Shown one piece after another: positions 55,508-62,211 of a stretch of DNA of 62,436 nucleotides. This DNA is from Ardenticatenia bacterium (GTDB lineage Bacteria; Chloroflexota; Anaerolineae; 4572-78; NAK82). The notes beneath the pieces are model-generated. The model ran no database searches and was not told where the DNA came from. It was given only the letters and a program-made list of their open reading frames with translations. Numbering within the stretch: the stretch's first letter is position 1; each line of letters starts with the position of its first letter. Made by a program: the position numbers and the translations under genes. The stretch spans positions 1 through 62,436 of the forward strand of contig QEXY01000047.1 in NCBI GenBank assembly GCA_003130875.1, written 5' to 3'.

Positions 55508-56809
55508 ATGTCTATTGTGAGCGAGGGAGTGCAAGCGACATCCGCGGGGCTGGGACCAGAAGAGCGTATCCGCGCTGCCCTCTTCTCCGGAGATGATGAG
55601 CAGATCGTGGAAGCGTGTCGCGGCAACGAACGACACCTGCACGCCTTTTCGGATGAGGAGAGGAAACGCATCGCCCTGGCATTTGAGCGCGTCCAGGTGT
55701 TGACTGAGCTGCGCGCCGCATTTGCCCGCCAATCGCCTGACGAGATCGTGCGTATTTACTCGAAGCATATTGACATCCTAGAAGGATGTCGCAACTTCAG
55801 CCGGGAAGAGCGACAGCGTGTGATCCAGGCCAAGCGCGCCCTTCTGCTGCGTGACCTGGAACTGGCAATGCGCGTGGGTGATATCTTCTGGATCGAGCGC
55901 GCTGGGCGTAGCGCTGCCGAGGGCGGTTGCCAGTTGTCACAAGAGCAATACCTTGCCATAGAACGTGCGCGTCAGACCATCACAGCGCTGCGTCAGTTGC
56001 AACAAGCGATCCAGGTGGATGACGATGTCGCCATTGTGCAAGCGTACAATGCCGAGCTGCTGGATAATTGTCGTCAGATCAGTGCTCAGGAGATGAAACG
56101 AGTGCGCCAGGCGCAAGATCGCTTGCGCCGCTGGCAACTCCTCCAGATGGCATTGGCCCGGGAAGATGATCGCCGCATTGCTTCCCTGTACGATCCTGTC
56201 TTGTTCGATGAACAGTTCAAACCGATGAGCGCGGAGCAGCGCGCGCGCTGTGAGCTCGCCATCCAGCGCGTCCGAGCATACGAACGGTTACAACAAGCAT
56301 TTCAGACAGGCGATCCCCAGCATATTGTGGATGCTTATGACCCTGAATTGTTGGATGCGTCCTCGTTGCTGACCGCGCAGCAACGCAGGCGCATTGAGGA
56401 AGCCCGTTATCAGGTGCTGATGCTCAAAGCTTGGAAAAGCGGCGACCTCGAGCGCATTATGGATGCGTATCGGGCGTTGCGGCAAGCACACGTGAGCTTG
56501 CCTGCCGGTGTGGATCGAGAGGCGCTGATAGAGGCGGAACAGCTGTGGGGATTGCTGGAACAATTTCGCACCGCATTGCGCTATCCGATAGCGCGCGACG
56601 AGGAAATTGTACGCTTGGGGGAACGTTTGTTGGATCGATCCCCCGATCTGGTGACGCCGGAGGAACGCGAACGTATCACCGACGCCAAAAAACGTTTAGG
56701 CGCCCGGTCGCGTCTGTTGTGGGCGACAGCCTCTGGGGATGACACGCGGATCACGTTGGTGCGGCGGCATCTGTCCTCCTTGGTCGCTTCGCGCTCCGGA
56801 CAGGGGTGA
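55508..56809 (+). CDS. Soluble protein of about nine ~48-residue helical repeats
   Basis: A 433-residue protein that I do not recognise as a named family. It lacks a signal peptide or TM segment and should be cytoplasmic. AGGAG lies 6 nt before the ATG. About nine units repeat, each with an acidic turn (SGDDEQI, SPDEI, GDIFWI, DDDVAI, EDDRRI, GDPQHI, GDLERI, RDEEI, GDDTRI at about residues 27, 76, 124, 171, 219, 268, 312, 362 and 410), then a helix with (I/V)..aYdpeLL, then LsxeqrrRiexAxxrv and a linking helix, so the period is close to 48. The layout suggests an alpha-solenoid for protein binding. First gene of a three-gene run. Confidence 0.75.
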   Translation: MSIVSEGVQATSAGLGPEERIRAALFSGDDEQIVEACRGNERHLHAFSDEERKRIALAFERVQVLTELRAAFARQSPDEIVRIYSKHIDILEGCRNFSREERQRVIQAKRALLLRDLELAMRVGDIFWIERAGRSAAEGGCQLSQEQYLAIERARQTITALRQLQQAIQVDDDVAIVQAYNAELLDNCRQISAQEMKRVRQAQDRLRRWQLLQMALAREDDRRIASLYDPVLFDEQFKPMSAEQRARCELAIQRVRAYERLQQAFQTGDPQHIVDAYDPELLDASSLLTAQQRRRIEEARYQVLMLKAWKSGDLERIMDAYRALRQAHVSLPAGVDREALIEAEQLWGLLEQFRTALRYPIARDEEIVRLGERLLDRSPDLVTPEERERITDAKKRLGARSRLLWATASGDDTRITLVRRHLSSLVASRSGQG

Positions 56810-56903
56810 ACATATCGCTGCTCTCATGTCACGTTGCGTTGACGCGGAGGGAGGATAAAACCAATATATATGGACGACATACCGGTTGAAAGGTAAGGTG
56901 CGC

Positions 56904-58664
56904 ATGAGCAATGCTGAGCTGACCGCTAAAATCCAAGCGCTTGCCACACAGTTGGAAGAAGTCGATAGCGACGCAGCGCGTCGCCTGCGCGACATCCAAG
57001 CGGCGCTGGAGGAGACACCCCCACGACGTGATCTCGCCTATCTAGATGCCCGTGCTATTTTGGATCCGCAAGGAATTGAGGAACGAGTCGTTGTACGGCG
57101 CCGACCGGGTTACCTGAGCTGGATAGAATGGCTGCGCAATGTGCTCGTGCTCTTCCCCATCGCGTTTACCTGGATTGGGCTGTCCCAGGCATCGGCGAAT
57201 TATGAGCGCGTGATCACTCTCTACCCCAATCTGATCGATCAACCTTTCCTGCTCCTCTGGGAGCGCGGCTTCCAGGAACTGGGAGGACGCCATGGGCCGA
57301 CTTTCAGTGAGGTGGCATTGGTGGACTTCCTTGTTCTGTCCGTCGTGATCTTGCTGACAGTGATGGTGCATCGTTGGCGCGATGTGCAGGAGACGAGGGC
57401 GGAACGGGAAGCAGCCGAGCTGCGCAGTCAGGTTGAGGAAATCATCTGGGATTTGGATCGCTATGTGGCCGCCCAGCGCAGCAGCCAGGATGTCAATCAA
57501 CTGGCTATCACGATGAGTGAGGCGGTGGATCGCTTTCGCATCCATGCCAACGAACTGCTTGATCTGATGCTGGCGGAGCGCCAACGCCTCGAGAGCATTG
57601 CCGCTTCGCGTGAACAGGAGCTCGATCATCTGCAGCTGGTGGGCGAGGCAGCGACAAAGCTCACTCAGTACGGACAATCGGTCGAGCAAGTGTATGAACG
57701 GTTACAAAGCTCGATCGACCGTTTCTCCGATGAGATCCAGCGTGTGGGTCAACAACAAGAGCTGTTGCTCAGAGCGTTGGACTCAGCGGACGTCGGATCT
57801 CACGAAATGGCAGAAGCGGTGCGCGTGTTGCGTCAAAGCTTGGCTACAGCGGTCAGCGAGCTAGGTGTGGCGGCATCGCGCAGCAGTGACAATATCACCA
57901 GTTTGGCCACCGCAATAGACGAAATGCGCGACTTGGCCTCGCGCTTGATGGAAGAGGACACGGCATTGCGGCGTGCCCTGTTGGAGACGCGCGAAGCGCA
58001 CCGCGAAATCACGCGCAACCTGCAGACTGCCACCAGCGAATTCCGCGACACCACCAGCATCAACCAAATTGCCGCCTCGACGTTGCGCCAGGCGGTCGGC
58101 GAACTGACACGCCTCATCCAGTCCAATGCCGAGATGTCGCGCCAGCTCACCCAGTCCGCCGAGCAGATGTCGCGTGCTGCGGAGGATCTGAGCGCCACAA
58201 CTTATCAAGCGATCAACCAGCTCAAGAGCACGGCCACGGTGAACCAGCAGACGATTTCGGCACTCGCCCACGTGGCGGACGAGCTGACCCGCGCTATCCA
58301 GGCCCACGCAAGCTTGGCGCAGCAACTGGCGCAATCGGCCGGCCAGATTGTCCGTGTCTCGGACAGCTTGAGCACGGCGACGGAGACGGCCGGTGCCACA
58401 TTCCGTGAACTCCAACCCGCCACTAGTGACCTGCGCGGAGCGATCGACATGCTCTCAGAGCAGACACGCCGCCTGAGTGAGCTGATCAGCAGCCCAGATC
58501 AAGCGGGGGCGCGCTGGCTACTCTATCGCGGTCGGCCTGCTTATGCGACTCCGGCACCGCGCTCACGCTTGCTCTTCCTGGGCATCGGTTTAGGCTTCGG
58601 CCTGGGGGTTGGCGCTGGAGCGTATATCCTGTTGATGATTGGCTTGCTTCCGGTGCTGCGATGA
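56904..58664 (+). CDS. Membrane protein with long coiled coil
   Basis: A 586-residue protein of unknown family. The ATG at 56904 follows AAGGTG; TTG at 56886 is an alternative. Two TM helices lie at about 76-96 and 134-156, with a loop of about 37 residues between them. Residues about 160-530 are charged, Gln/Ala/Leu-rich and heptad-like ([20 protein letters not shown] and onward), predicting a long coiled coil; a third TM helix (Gly-rich) lies at about 557-580. If the N-terminus is inside, the coiled coil is cytoplasmic. It resembles the layout of MotA/ZorA-type or chemoreceptor-like proteins only in general shape. It overlaps the next gene by 4 nt. Confidence 0.7.
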
Positions 58665-59578
58665 CCATCCGCGTGCCTCGCCGCTCCCGCTATCGTGACA
58701 CCATCGCCTTGGCCGGGTGGTTGTTCGCCGATCTGTTGCTCGGCCTTGCCATGTTATTCTTCGTCTTCAACACGGTGGGGGTGCGCCCGACTCCCACGCC
58801 CGGCCCGACGCCAACGCCCTACCCGACCTACACCCCTGGCCCGACGCCCACACCGTATCCAACCTACACACCCGGTCCGACCTATACACCCGGTCCGACG
58901 TATACGCCCTATCCGACCTACACGCCGGGGCCGACACCGACCCCTTACCCGACCTATACACCCGGCCCGACACCCACACCTTATCCGACGTACACGCCCG
59001 GCCCGTCGCCAACCCCTTATCCAACGTATACACCCGGTCCGACCTACACACCTTATCCGACGTATACGCCGGGTCCATCGCCCACGCCCTATCCGACCTA
59101 CACGCCCGGCCCGTCACCGACACCGTATCCGACCTATACGCCGGGACCATCACCGACACCGTATCCGACCTATACGCCATGGCCGACGCCGCGCCCATTG
59201 CCGACATATACACCGTTGCCGCGCACCGGCCTGGACCCCCGCTCTTCGACCATCACCCTGGTGGCCGATGCGGACGCCTTGCTCGCGCCAGGAGGGCCAG
59301 AGAAGGCACGTGCGGTCGAGCAACTGCGCGTTCAATTGCGTGAACGAATCGGACTCATCGGAGCGCGCAAGGCAGGCATCGTGTTGACGTTTGGCGTCTC
59401 GCCTGATCCGTTTGAGGGTAATCGCATCGCGCGTGAGGTGAATCGCGTGTTGCTCGAAACGTTCCCGGAGGTTTTCGAGACGGCCATTTTGCGCGACTAT
59501 CACACGATTGATCCGAACCGTGCCAACCGGGGCAACGTCGAACTGGAGATCTACTTCTTGCTCGAGACACCGCGCTGA
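58661..59578 (+). CDS. MotB/ZorB-like single-TM protein with PTYTPGP repeats and OmpA-like end
   Basis: A 305-residue protein. Residues 1-15 are basic; one TM helix (about 17-38) follows, with Asp24 near its start in [15 protein letters not shown], like the ion-binding Asp in the TM of MotB and ZorB. Residues about 43-188 consist of [12 protein letters not shown]-type repeats of 12 residues (with shorter PTYTPG variants), a stiff linker that could span a cell wall. Residues about 195-305 form a beta-alpha-beta-alpha-beta domain ([48 protein letters not shown]) resembling an OmpA-like domain without its usual GHTD motif. Function not known; the ATG overlaps the preceding stop (ATGA). Confidence 0.7.
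58785..59225 (+). repeat. Tandem Pro/Thr-coding repeat inside the MotB/ZorB-like gene
   Basis: About 440 bp of near-tandem units coding PTYTPGP(T/S)PTPY, mostly 36 bp with shorter 18-bp units mixed in; third-codon positions vary, so the array is kept at protein level. Length differences between strains would be expected. Confidence 0.85.
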
Positions 59579-59708: not shown

Positions 59709-60668
59709 ATGCTCGTATCCACCCTTGCCCTGCTGAAGGTCGCCTACGGCCGTTTCATCATCGGAGCGTACAACGTGCAAAACATGGAGCAGGTGCTGGC
59801 GGTCTTTCGGGGCAGCCTGGCAGCGCGGGCACCGGTCATCGTCGCCACAGTGCCGTTTGCGCGCGACTATGCGGGTGCAAGGATGCTCCAGGCGATGGTG
59901 CGCGCTGCGGATGAGATGTATCCCGAAGCGGTTGCAGCTATGCATCTTGACCACGGCGATGAAGCACACTGCCTGGATGCCATCCAATCTGGTTTTTACC
60001 ACTCGGTGATGATTGACGCTTCCCATCTGCCGTTCGAGGAAAACATCAGCATGACCCGGCGCATTGTGGAGCGCGCCCATGCGGCTGGCCTGGCGGTGGA
60101 GGCAGAATTGGGCGTCGTGGCCGGGCAGGAGGCAAGCCACAGCGCAAGTACACGCCTTGCATTGACCGATCCCGATCAGGCAGCGGAGTTCGTCGCGCGC
60201 ACTGACTGCGACAGCTTAGCAGTTGCCATCGGCACCAGCCACGGCGCCTATAAGTTTCAGGGGGAACAACGTCTGCACCTCGATCGGCTGGCCGAGATCC
60301 AGGCACGTCTCCCGCAAGGCTTCCCCCTAGTGCTCCACGGCGCGTCATCGGTGCCCTCTGATGAGGTAGCGCGGATCAATGCTGCCGGTGGGAAGCTCAA
60401 TCCGAACGCGCGAGGTGTCGATCCTGCCGATTTTGCGCGGGCGTGGCCGCTGGGGGTGGCAAAGATCAACATCCACACCGACGCCCACCTCGTATGGTAT
60501 CGTGTGCACCGCGAACATTTTCGTGACCATCCCGAAAACTTTGATTTCCGCCATCCTGGCAGCATCTTTATGGAGGAATTCGAGAAGCTGATCATCACGC
60601 GCAGCGAACAATTGGGCTGCGCTGGCAAGCTCGACGAGGTGCGTGAGAAGATCTATGCGGCAAATTGA
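59709..60668 (+). CDS. Class II ketose-bisphosphate aldolase
   Basis: A zinc aldolase cleaving fructose- or tagatose-type bisphosphates (or a relative) to dihydroxyacetone phosphate and an aldehyde. GAGGAG lies upstream of the ATG at 59709. 319 residues. The zinc and catalytic region is AAMHLDHGDEAHCL (Asp and His), then GVVAGQEASHS, DSLAVAIGTSHGAYKF, PLVLHGASSVPSDEV (zinc His) and KINIHTDAHLVW (phosphate binding). The gene overlaps glpA by 14 nt; both enzymes share dihydroxyacetone phosphate. The precise sugar is not evident. Confidence 0.88.
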   Translation: MLVSTLALLKVAYGRFIIGAYNVQNMEQVLAVFRGSLAARAPVIVATVPFARDYAGARMLQAMVRAADEMYPEAVAAMHLDHGDEAHCLDAIQSGFYHSVMIDASHLPFEENISMTRRIVERAHAAGLAVEAELGVVAGQEASHSASTRLALTDPDQAAEFVARTDCDSLAVAIGTSHGAYKFQGEQRLHLDRLAEIQARLPQGFPLVLHGASSVPSDEVARINAAGGKLNPNARGVDPADFARAWPLGVAKINIHTDAHLVWYRVHREHFRDHPENFDFRHPGSIFMEEFEKLIITRSEQLGCAGKLDEVREKIYAAN

Positions 60669-62211
60669 GACCGAAGTGCTGGTGATCGGGGGCGGTGCCA
60701 CCGGCACCGGTGTGCTGCGTGATCTGGCCATGCGTGGCTTCCGCGCCATTCTGGTAGAGCGGAACGACCTTGCCCACGGCACCACCGGTCGCTACCATGG
60801 ATTGTTGCACAGCGGTGCACGTTATGCTGTGCGCGACCCCCAAACGGCTGTCGAGTGCATCCAGGAGAATCGCATCCTGCGGCGCATCATGCCCCATTGC
60901 ATCGAAGACACCGGCGGGTTCTTCGTGGTTACCCCTTGGGATGACGAAGCATTTGTCCCTCAGTTCTTGGAAGGATGTCGCAAGGCAGGCATCCCAGTGG
61001 AAGAAATCCCCATCGTGCAGATGTTGCGTGCAGAACCTCTGCTGAATCCGCGCATCACGCGTTGCTTTCGCGTGCCGGATGGGGCAGCCGACTCGTTCCG
61101 CGCCGCTGAAGCCAACGTGGCGTCCGCCCGTGCCTATGGCGCCCAGGCGTTCACCTACCATCGTGTGGAGCGGCTGCTCGTCTCGGCAGGCAAGGTGAGC
61201 GGTGCGGTGTGTCGCAACTTAATCCGAGATGAAGAGGTAACCATCCGCGCCGACATGGTGGTGAATGCCGCAGGGGCTTGGGCAGGACGGATCGCCGCGC
61301 TGGCAGGCCTCGATGTGCCAGTGCGATGTGGCAAGGGCACTATGGTGGCCATCAATCACCGCGTCCTCAACACGGTGGTCAACCGCTGTCGTCCGCCCTC
61401 GGATGGCGACATTATTGTGCCGACACACACCGTCGCCGTGATCGGCACCACCGATGTTCCGGTCGACGATGCCGACGACTATCACATCGAGCCGTGGGAA
61501 GTGGAGCGCATGCTGGCGGAGGGGGCCAAGCTGCTGCCCGGTCTGCCTGAAATGCGCATTCTGCGCGCGTGGGCGGGCGTGCGTCCCCTGTATGCCGCTG
61601 AACCAACGCAACACGATCGCGGCATCAGCCGCGGGCACGTGCTGCTCGACCACACCGAGCGAGACGGCGTCGTCGGCTTGGTCACCATCGTGGGTGGGAA
61701 GTGGACCACATACCGCCTGATGGCGCAGGACACAGTGGATCTGGTATGCCGTTTATTAGGCACGCAACGCGCGTGTCGTACCCATCTGGAAGCATTGCCG
61801 GCGGTGGAAAAGGACCATGCCACTGACCATCACCGCCTGGGCGTACCGCTCGCACACGTTGAAGGGAGAAACGCATCGGGGGAGCTGGTGTGTGAATGTG
61901 AGCTGGCAACGCGTCACGCCGTGGAACGTGCCATCGCCACAGGAGAGGTTACCAGCCTGGACGACTTGCGGCGTGACGTGCGCCTGGGAATGGGACCGTG
62001 CCAAGGAGGTTTCTGTAGCTACCGCGCCACTGGTATCATGCACCGGATGCATTCCCGAAATGGCGCTCGAAGCACCCTCCTGTGGCGCGACTTCGTACAG
62101 GAGCGCTGGAAGGGCTTGCTGCCTGTGGTGTATGGAGATCAGTTGCGTCAAACACGTCTCAACGAGCTGCTGTGTCGCACGCTCTTCAGTCTCGATCGCG
62201 GGATGCGCTAG
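60655..62211 (+). CDS. glpA: Anaerobic glycerol-3-phosphate dehydrogenase subunit A
   Basis: FAD enzyme oxidising glycerol 3-phosphate to dihydroxyacetone phosphate. The ATG at 60655 gives MRQIETEVLVIGGGATGTGV; a further upstream ATG (60643) lacks support. 518 residues. The Rossmann motif is VLVIGGGATGTGVLRDLA, and the FAD region ends in RYHGLLHSGARYAV. The C-terminal bfr-like [2Fe-2S] cysteines are ELVCECEL and MGPCQGGFC. It overlaps the aldolase by 14 nt, and glpB follows after about 43 nt, as in the glpABC set. Confidence 0.93.
   Translation: MRQIETEVLVIGGGATGTGVLRDLAMRGFRAILVERNDLAHGTTGRYHGLLHSGARYAVRDPQTAVECIQENRILRRIMPHCIEDTGGFFVVTPWDDEAFVPQFLEGCRKAGIPVEEIPIVQMLRAEPLLNPRITRCFRVPDGAADSFRAAEANVASARAYGAQAFTYHRVERLLVSAGKVSGAVCRNLIRDEEVTIRADMVVNAAGAWAGRIAALAGLDVPVRCGKGTMVAINHRVLNTVVNRCRPPSDGDIIVPTHTVAVIGTTDVPVDDADDYHIEPWEVERMLAEGAKLLPGLPEMRILRAWAGVRPLYAAEPTQHDRGISRGHVLLDHTERDGVVGLVTIVGGKWTTYRLMAQDTVDLVCRLLGTQRACRTHLEALPAVEKDHATDHHRLGVPLAHVEGRNASGELVCECELATRHAVERAIATGEVTSLDDLRRDVRLGMGPCQGGFCSYRATGIMHRMHSRNGARSTLLWRDFVQERWKGLLPVVYGDQLRQTRLNELLCRTLFSLDRGMR

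What the first reader, a model, noticed from the sequence alone, without database searches (positions are those of the whole stretch)
55508..56809. About nine repeats of 48 residues in the first protein of the operon
Acidic turns recur at about residues 27, 76, 124, 171, 219, 268, 312, 362 and 410, spaced 44-50 apart, each followed by similar helices. This regular repeat does not match the TPR, HEAT or ankyrin periods (34, about 40, 33) I know.
Basis: seen in the sequence. Interest (0 to 1): 0.55.

Follow-up and report, generated by a model that had tools for sequence, protein, structure and literature searches.

The report
Helical repeat scaffold beside membrane anchor
A bacterial protein is built from about eight and a half copies of a 45-50 residue two-helix unit that is not in the family and structure libraries searched, and relatives elsewhere in the phylum sit next to, or are fused to, kinases and phosphatases of known or candidate anti-phage systems beside a wall-anchor-like membrane protein pair, so it is most likely a scaffold that ties signalling enzymes to the cell envelope.

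Summary
ORF 55508-56809 (433 aa) has eight full units of 45-50 residues plus a half ninth. Leave-one-out profiles score each of the eight units above at least 1997 of 2000 shuffles. AlphaFold gives a confident all-helix array, pLDDT 88.7. No Pfam, NCBIfam, PADLOC or PDB-sequence match was credible.

A profile of these units alone finds the repeat in about 10 of 301 phylum genomes. It forms stand-alone proteins (Herpetosiphon giganteus, Ca. Chloroploca mongolica) or arrays fused to TerY-P-type kinases (PADLOC STK_OB) and a PP2C phosphatase. Usually a two-gene membrane pair lies beside it: gene 2 (two TM helices plus a long tail) and gene 3 (one TM with an invariant Asp, a PT-rich linker and an OmpA/MotB-like domain by predicted fold). 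In one lineage the whole set is kinase, TerY, PP2C, kinase-plus-repeats, DO-GTPase, GAP1-N2, gene 2, gene 3.

Best reading: a cytoplasmic helical scaffold that docks phospho-signalling partners on an envelope-anchored, possibly Zorya-like, membrane complex. Scaffold role inferred. The window genome itself has no TerY or STK_OB hit.

The parts
55508..56809 (+). gene 1: 433-aa protein, eight full helical units plus a half unit
55568..55708 (+). unit 1 (residues 21-67)
   Evidence: 0 of 2000 shuffles reach it
55709..55855 (+). unit 2 (68-116)
   Evidence: 0 of 2000
55856..55996 (+). unit 3 (117-163), divergent
   Evidence: 3 of 2000
55997..56140 (+). unit 4 (164-211)
   Evidence: 0 of 2000
56141..56287 (+). 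unit 5 (212-260)
   Evidence: 0 of 2000
56288..56422 (+). unit 6 (261-305), closest to consensus
   Evidence: 0 of 2000
56423..56563 (+). unit 7 (306-352), divergent
   Evidence: 3 of 2000
56564..56713 (+). unit 8 (353-402)
   Evidence: 0 of 2000
56714..56785 (+). half unit 9 (403-426)
   Evidence: helices 384-409 and 412-427 in model
56886..58664 (+). gene 2: 592 aa (TTG start; ATG at 56904 possible): N-terminal region conserved in the phylum, two TM helices, long coiled-coil-like tail, C-terminal TM
57141..57380 (+). gene 2 TM hairpin (residues about 86-165)
   Evidence: hydropathy; alignment A3
58661..59578 (+). gene 3: 305 aa, one TM, PT-rich linker, OmpA/MotB-like C-terminal domain
58691..58774 (+). 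gene 3 TM helix (residues 11-38) with invariant GW..AD motif, Asp24
   Evidence: invariant in 18 of 18 rows
58785..59215 (+). DNA tandem repeat encoding the disordered [12 protein letters not shown] linker of gene 3
   Evidence: low pLDDT
59228..59563 (+). gene 3 OmpA-like domain (residues 190-301, strand-helix-strand-helix-strand-strand)

Best explanation
Gene 1 is a cytoplasmic scaffold made of tandem two-helix units of a previously uncatalogued repeat family. It gives an extended helical surface that docks partner proteins next to a membrane complex formed by gene 2 and gene 3. Gene 3 crosses the membrane once and puts an OmpA/MotB-like domain into the envelope on a long disordered tether; gene 2 reaches into the cytoplasm with a long helical tail. 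In relatives the docked or fused partners are a TerY-type vWA protein, a PP2C phosphatase, a Ser/Thr kinase and sometimes a DO-GTPase with GAP1-N2, so the assembly probably couples an envelope event (damage or phage entry) to phospho-signalling. Shown: repeats, helical prediction, conserved neighbourhood, fusions to kinase and PP2C, predicted fold of the gene 3 domain. Inferred: scaffold role, physical contact with gene 2 or 3, orientation in the membrane, envelope sensing, defence.
For: Repeats real; confident helical model with no TM and no known catalytic domain. A profile of units from the window and its orthologue only finds G131, G347, G219, G226, G146, G203, G119, G240 and G164. Order repeat gene, gene 2, gene 3 is kept in the window, G001, Herpetosiphon giganteus, Ca. 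Chloroploca mongolica, Chloroflexi 54-19 and Anaerolineae SJ719, although the repeat proteins of the last four are only 24-30% identical to the window's. A repeat ORF lies within about 5 kb of gene 3 in 15 of 28 loci fetched by gene 3 alone (11 of 28 with the profile not iterated). Of 10 strong repeat genomes, 7 have gene 3 on the same contig within 10 kb. The same units are fused C-terminal to STK_OB kinases (E 3.8e-48, 8.1e-43, 9.9e-46) and to a PP2C, with TerY (E 3.3e-64, 4.1e-68) and, in L040, DO-GTPase2 and GAP1-N2 in the locus.
Against: The window genome and its close relative G001 have no TerY or STK_OB match and G000 has no DO-GTPase2 over cut-off, so there the three genes stand alone. 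Gene 3 also occurs without a detected repeat ORF in 13 of 28 loci (two of these contigs, L049 and L056, are cut close upstream of gene 3). No contact between the proteins was tested. No structural neighbour points to a binding mode.
Confidence: 0.55

Rival explanations
1. The protein is a very diverged member of an existing alpha-solenoid family (HEAT or TPR-like), and the 48-residue unit is only drift.
For: Best Foldseek rows include TPR-type proteins (IFT70 E 0.021, LGN, P58IPK). HEAT units range up to about 47 residues (recalled).
Against: None of these rows is significant (no E<=0.001); VIA-align best Z 6.7 at rmsd 17.4, within the range that the tool gives for helical models without a clear match. 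No Pfam repeat family at E<=1 for the window protein, nor any over its cut-off in the seven repeat-bearing relatives scanned (one HAT-type row at E 0.092).
Confidence: 0.2
2. The array is a ruler or spacer within an envelope complex of housekeeping type (cell wall or division), unrelated to defence; the kinase context elsewhere is secondary.
For: In the window genus the operon sits beside an aldolase-like and an FAD-dependent glycerol-3-phosphate-dehydrogenase-like gene in both genomes, not in an evident defence island; no triad in G000 or G001; no plasmid hits.
Against: In other families the repeat is fused to STK_OB kinases and PP2C and lies with TerY, DO-GTPase, GAP1-N2. TerY-P is a reported anti-phage system (PMC7699616, passage).
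Confidence: 0.3
3. The repeats are the by-product of a charged helical composition, not homologous units.
For: Composition is rich in A, R, E, L, Q (sequence); units 3 and 7 are weak.
Against: Shuffles of the same composition almost never reach the scores; 360 shuffled ORFs of the window and 28 loci give nothing below E 0.6.
Confidence: 0.02

Closest known systems
TerY-P phosphorylation triad (TerY vWA, PP2C, STK with OB fold or zinc ribbon)
   Same: In G203, G219 and G119 (family f63) the repeat follows the kinase domain of a triad-type kinase, and also lies in the PP2C protein of G219 and G119; PADLOC TerY, PP2C and STK_OB models match in the loci tested.
   Different: The window operon has none of the three genes; G000 has no TerY or STK_OB match.
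GAP1-N2 DO-GTPase conflict systems (Kaur et al. 2020, PMC7159879, passages read)
   Same: L040 carries DO-GTPase2 and GAP1-N2/M between the repeat kinase and gene 2; the paper describes a kinase, PP2C, vWA theme and TM components.
   Different: In the passages found this helical repeat and an OmpA-like partner of GAP1-N2 are not described; the window has no DO-GTPase gene in its operon.
Zorya ZorAB / MotAB stators
   Same: Gene 3: one TM with a conserved Asp, then an OmpA/MotB-like domain (VIA Z 8.6 to H. pylori MotB, 7.2 to ZorB 8vvn_B). ZorB D24 is needed for defence (PMC11890865, passage). Gene 2 has a long tail as ZorA has.
   Different: Gene 2 shows two N-terminal TM helices plus zero to two C-terminal ones, no MotA domain; its PADLOC ZorA hits lie in the coiled-coil part only.
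TPR, HEAT and other alpha-solenoids
   Same: Tandem helix pairs.
   Different: Unit of 45-50 residues with one long and one short helix; no family match.

Membership tests
TPR repeat | 34-residue unit | tested here: not met
   steps 45-50
TPR, HEAT, ARM, ankyrin, PPR (Pfam models) | match to the family's profile | tested here: inconclusive
   no Pfam family at E<=1; distant relation not excluded
alpha-solenoid class in general | regular array of stacked helix pairs | tested here: inconclusive
   regular long-short helix pairs, pLDDT 88.7, but pTM 0.59 and no coordinates for geometry
TerY-P triad (window operon) | TerY vWA, PP2C and STK_OB genes together | tested here: not met
   no such gene in the operon; 0 TerY and 0 STK_OB matches in G000
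TerY-P triad (relatives L040, L039) | TerY, PP2C, STK_OB in one locus | tested here: met
   L039 all three; L040 TerY and PP2C; L040 STK_OB
GAP1-N2 DO-GTPase system (window operon) | DO-GTPase and GAP1 genes | tested here: not met
   not in operon; PF19993 over cut-off in 0 of 1, G000; GAP1 was not searched in G000
GAP1-N2 DO-GTPase system (relative L040) | DO-GTPase2 and GAP1-N2 | tested here: met
   PF19993 E 5.9e-11, PF20013 E 2.5e-16
Zorya / MotAB (genes 2 and 3) | B subunit: TM with conserved Asp plus OmpA-like domain | tested here: met
   (predicted fold only; RusA ties at Z 8.8; no sequence match)
Zorya / MotAB (genes 2 and 3) | A subunit: MotA/ExbB/TolQ domain | tested here: not met
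   no MotA_ExbB hit for gene 2, TM layout differs, no PDB sequence relative of its N-terminal region
OmpA-like peptidoglycan binding | ligand-binding residues of the domain | not tested
   residues not mapped

The most novel reading that the evidence does not exclude
The repeat defines a new adaptor family that wires TerY-P/GAP1-type phospho-signalling to an ion-driven or tension-sensing ZorAB-like membrane pair, that is, a hybrid defence or stress system of Chloroflexota in which a helical scaffold takes the place of the soluble partner of Zorya; the window's three-gene operon is its minimal form.
Probability: 0.2. Interest if true: 0.75.

Novelty: new variant of a known kind. Interest (0 to 1): 0.5.

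Why it matters
It adds an undescribed helical repeat that can be turned into a profile, and this profile reveals a shared but uncatalogued membrane module (genes 2 and 3) beside several signalling systems (TerY-P, GAP1-N2). If the stator-like reading holds, it would suggest how such systems sense the envelope, and the three-gene operon would be the simplest version to study.

Tried and rejected
Plain protein searches found only the genus: 3 of 100 relatives, none in viral contigs or plasmids (a second query). The profile hits in G284 and G363 are ABC transporter ATPases (the match lies about LSGGQRQRVALARAL) and were dropped from the count (12 of 301 becomes 10, own genome included). Two single-unit hits in 246 genomes of the phylum of G386 were not followed and are treated as probable chance. 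Loci L068-L075 showed no repeat, and of 16 genomes behind fetched loci 6 matched. In one search, 18 of 301 genomes match; only the 10 at E<1e-5 were used, and six of these (G000, G131, G347, G219, G203, G119) supplied units to the profile A7. PADLOC ZorA hits of gene 2 were rejected as coiled-coil matches. Gene 3 has no Pfam, PADLOC or PDB sequence match; only the predicted fold places it, and RusA and chorismate mutase rows score close to OmpA. In one search, 64 of 301 genomes match the gene 3 profile, but many rows cover only its PT-rich linker and were not counted as gene 3. Fold search of gene 1 gave no significant neighbour; the 14-3-3 rows there concern residues 340-432 for the most part. 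Iterating the profile risks drift, so the uniterated counts are also given. Papers: PMC7159879, PMC7699616, PMC11090510 and PMC11890865 were read as found passages only; Gao et al. 2020 and Anantharaman et al. 2012 were seen only as cited there. The four searches meant to find the repeat or its system in print listed no title or abstract on this repeat; two searches were on TerY-P.

Full report
Observation. The ORF at 55508-56809 encodes 433 residues. Unit starts are spaced 45-50 residues. Autocorrelation peaks at lags 94, 97, 47 and 44. The strict test is the leave-one-out profile: each unit was scored by a profile of the other units, with its orthologue in G001 also left out, against 2000 shuffles of itself. 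Six of eight units beat all shuffles; units 3 and 7 were reached by 3 of 2000 each. Codon-position differences against the G001 orthologue (76/48/233) show a translated, constrained gene.

Anatomy. The AlphaFold model (six sequences in the alignment) has pLDDT 88.7 and is all helix: each unit contributes a long helix of about 22-26 residues, which runs from the conserved E/R-A-R stretch of one unit into the start of the next, then the acidic turn, then a short helix of about 7-14 residues. pTM is 0.59, so long-range geometry is uncertain. Foldseek gave no match at E<=0.001 (best 0.021, IFT70), VIA-align no Z of 8 or more. There is no TM segment by hydropathy.

Family. Pfam, NCBIfam and PADLOC do not know the protein. 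A profile from the window and G001 units (A1) matched 12 of 301 phylum genomes, of which two are ABC ATPase artefacts. Loci L055, L057-L060, L063-L065 and L067, several titled Thermomicrobiales, carry one to a few units near the C-terminus of ORFs of 476-961 residues; the three that were scanned (L055, L060, L067) match STK_OB at the N-terminus. In L052, L061, L050 and L051 the order of the units, including the divergent unit 3 and the LPAG-type unit 7, can be followed in the alignment at 24-30% identity, so these look like orthologues of the whole array and not only shared units (my reading of the alignment).

Neighbourhood. Gene 2 and gene 3 follow the repeat gene directly in the window, in G001, L050, L051, L052 and L061. 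In the Thermomicrobiales-type loci the repeat kinase is divergent from gene 2 and gene 3. Fetching by gene 3 alone gave 28 loci; 15 hold a repeat ORF within about 5 kb, or 11 with the profile not iterated and E<0.01 (360 shuffled ORFs gave none below 0.6). In 7 of the 10 strong repeat genomes gene 3 lies on the same contig within 10 kb (G000, G131, G146, G164, G203, G240, G347). In G226 the two are on different contigs; in G119 and G219 a diverged gene 2 is adjacent but the gene 3 hits lie elsewhere. L050 reads vWA, PP2C, a small ORF, kinase, repeat, gene 2, gene 3. L040 reads kinase-like gene, TerY, PP2C, kinase with repeats, DO-GTPase2, GAP1-N2, gene 2 (cut by the locus end); gene 3 follows on the contig. 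G093 has genes 2 and 3 with a DO-GTPase, a PP2C and a WD40 kinase but no repeat (L054).

Gene 3. The 18 aligned sequences (window and 17 others) share an invariant GW..AD.L in the single TM helix. The modelled C-terminal domain (residues 190-301, strand-helix-strand-helix-strand-strand, pLDDT mostly above 90) matches OmpA-like domains: Foldseek E 1.4e-4 to Salmonella OmpA, VIA-align Z 9.3 (rmsd 3.0, 96 aligned), MotB 8.6 (rmsd 4.6, 100), ZorB 7.2 (rmsd 4.9, 112). RusA at 8.8 (rmsd 3.2, 104) is a tied row of another family, so the assignment rests on the number of OmpA-like rows and on the TM-linker-domain layout. Sequence searches do not see it.

Mechanism. The scaffold role is inferred from three facts: tandem helical units without a known catalytic domain, fusion of the same units to kinase and phosphatase, and frequent company of a membrane pair with an envelope-type domain. 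ZorB D24 is reported as crucial for defence and ZorA has a long cytoplasmic tail (PMC11890865, passages); gene 3 has an invariant Asp in its TM and gene 2 a long tail, which is the basis for the stator-like reading. Against it: gene 2 lacks a MotA domain and has another TM layout. Against a TerY-P reading for the window itself: no TerY or STK_OB in G000 or G001, though G002 of the same genus has both on contig C143, apart from its repeat gene on C63.

Verdict. A real, uncatalogued repeat family with a telling context; moderate interest. The class (helical repeat scaffold) is known; the family and its membrane partnership appear undescribed in the libraries and the papers searched.

Noticed in passing
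window 58785-59215: DNA tandem repeats of 18/36/72/108 bases encode the [12 protein letters not shown] linker of gene 3; its length differs between genus members (305 and 311 aa proteins).
   Followed up: partly
window 58661-58664: Gene 3 starts inside the stop codon of gene 2 (ATGA overlap), suggesting translational coupling.
   Followed up: no
window 59709-62211; L004 4768-7285 (reverse): A class II aldolase-like gene and an FAD-dependent glycerol-3-phosphate-dehydrogenase-like gene follow the operon in both genus members; the upstream genes differ (PMT_2-type glycosyltransferase in the window, a similar protein in L003, DUF6920 protein and then an rpoB-like gene in G001).
   Followed up: partly
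L008 1326-6848: A 571-aa and a 938-aa protein flanking the DO-GTPase in G093 match no Pfam family well; the larger may be a diverged GAP1 by position.
   Followed up: partly
L069, L072, L073, L075: Gene 3 relatives occur in actinomycetes (Glycomyces, Actinomadura, Spongiactinospora) without the repeat; in L073 a vWA-like ORF follows gene 3 (by eye).
   Followed up: no
G347 C83:78637-86200: A TerY and an STK_OB hit lie about 27-35 kb from the repeat operon on the same contig of G347.
   Followed up: no
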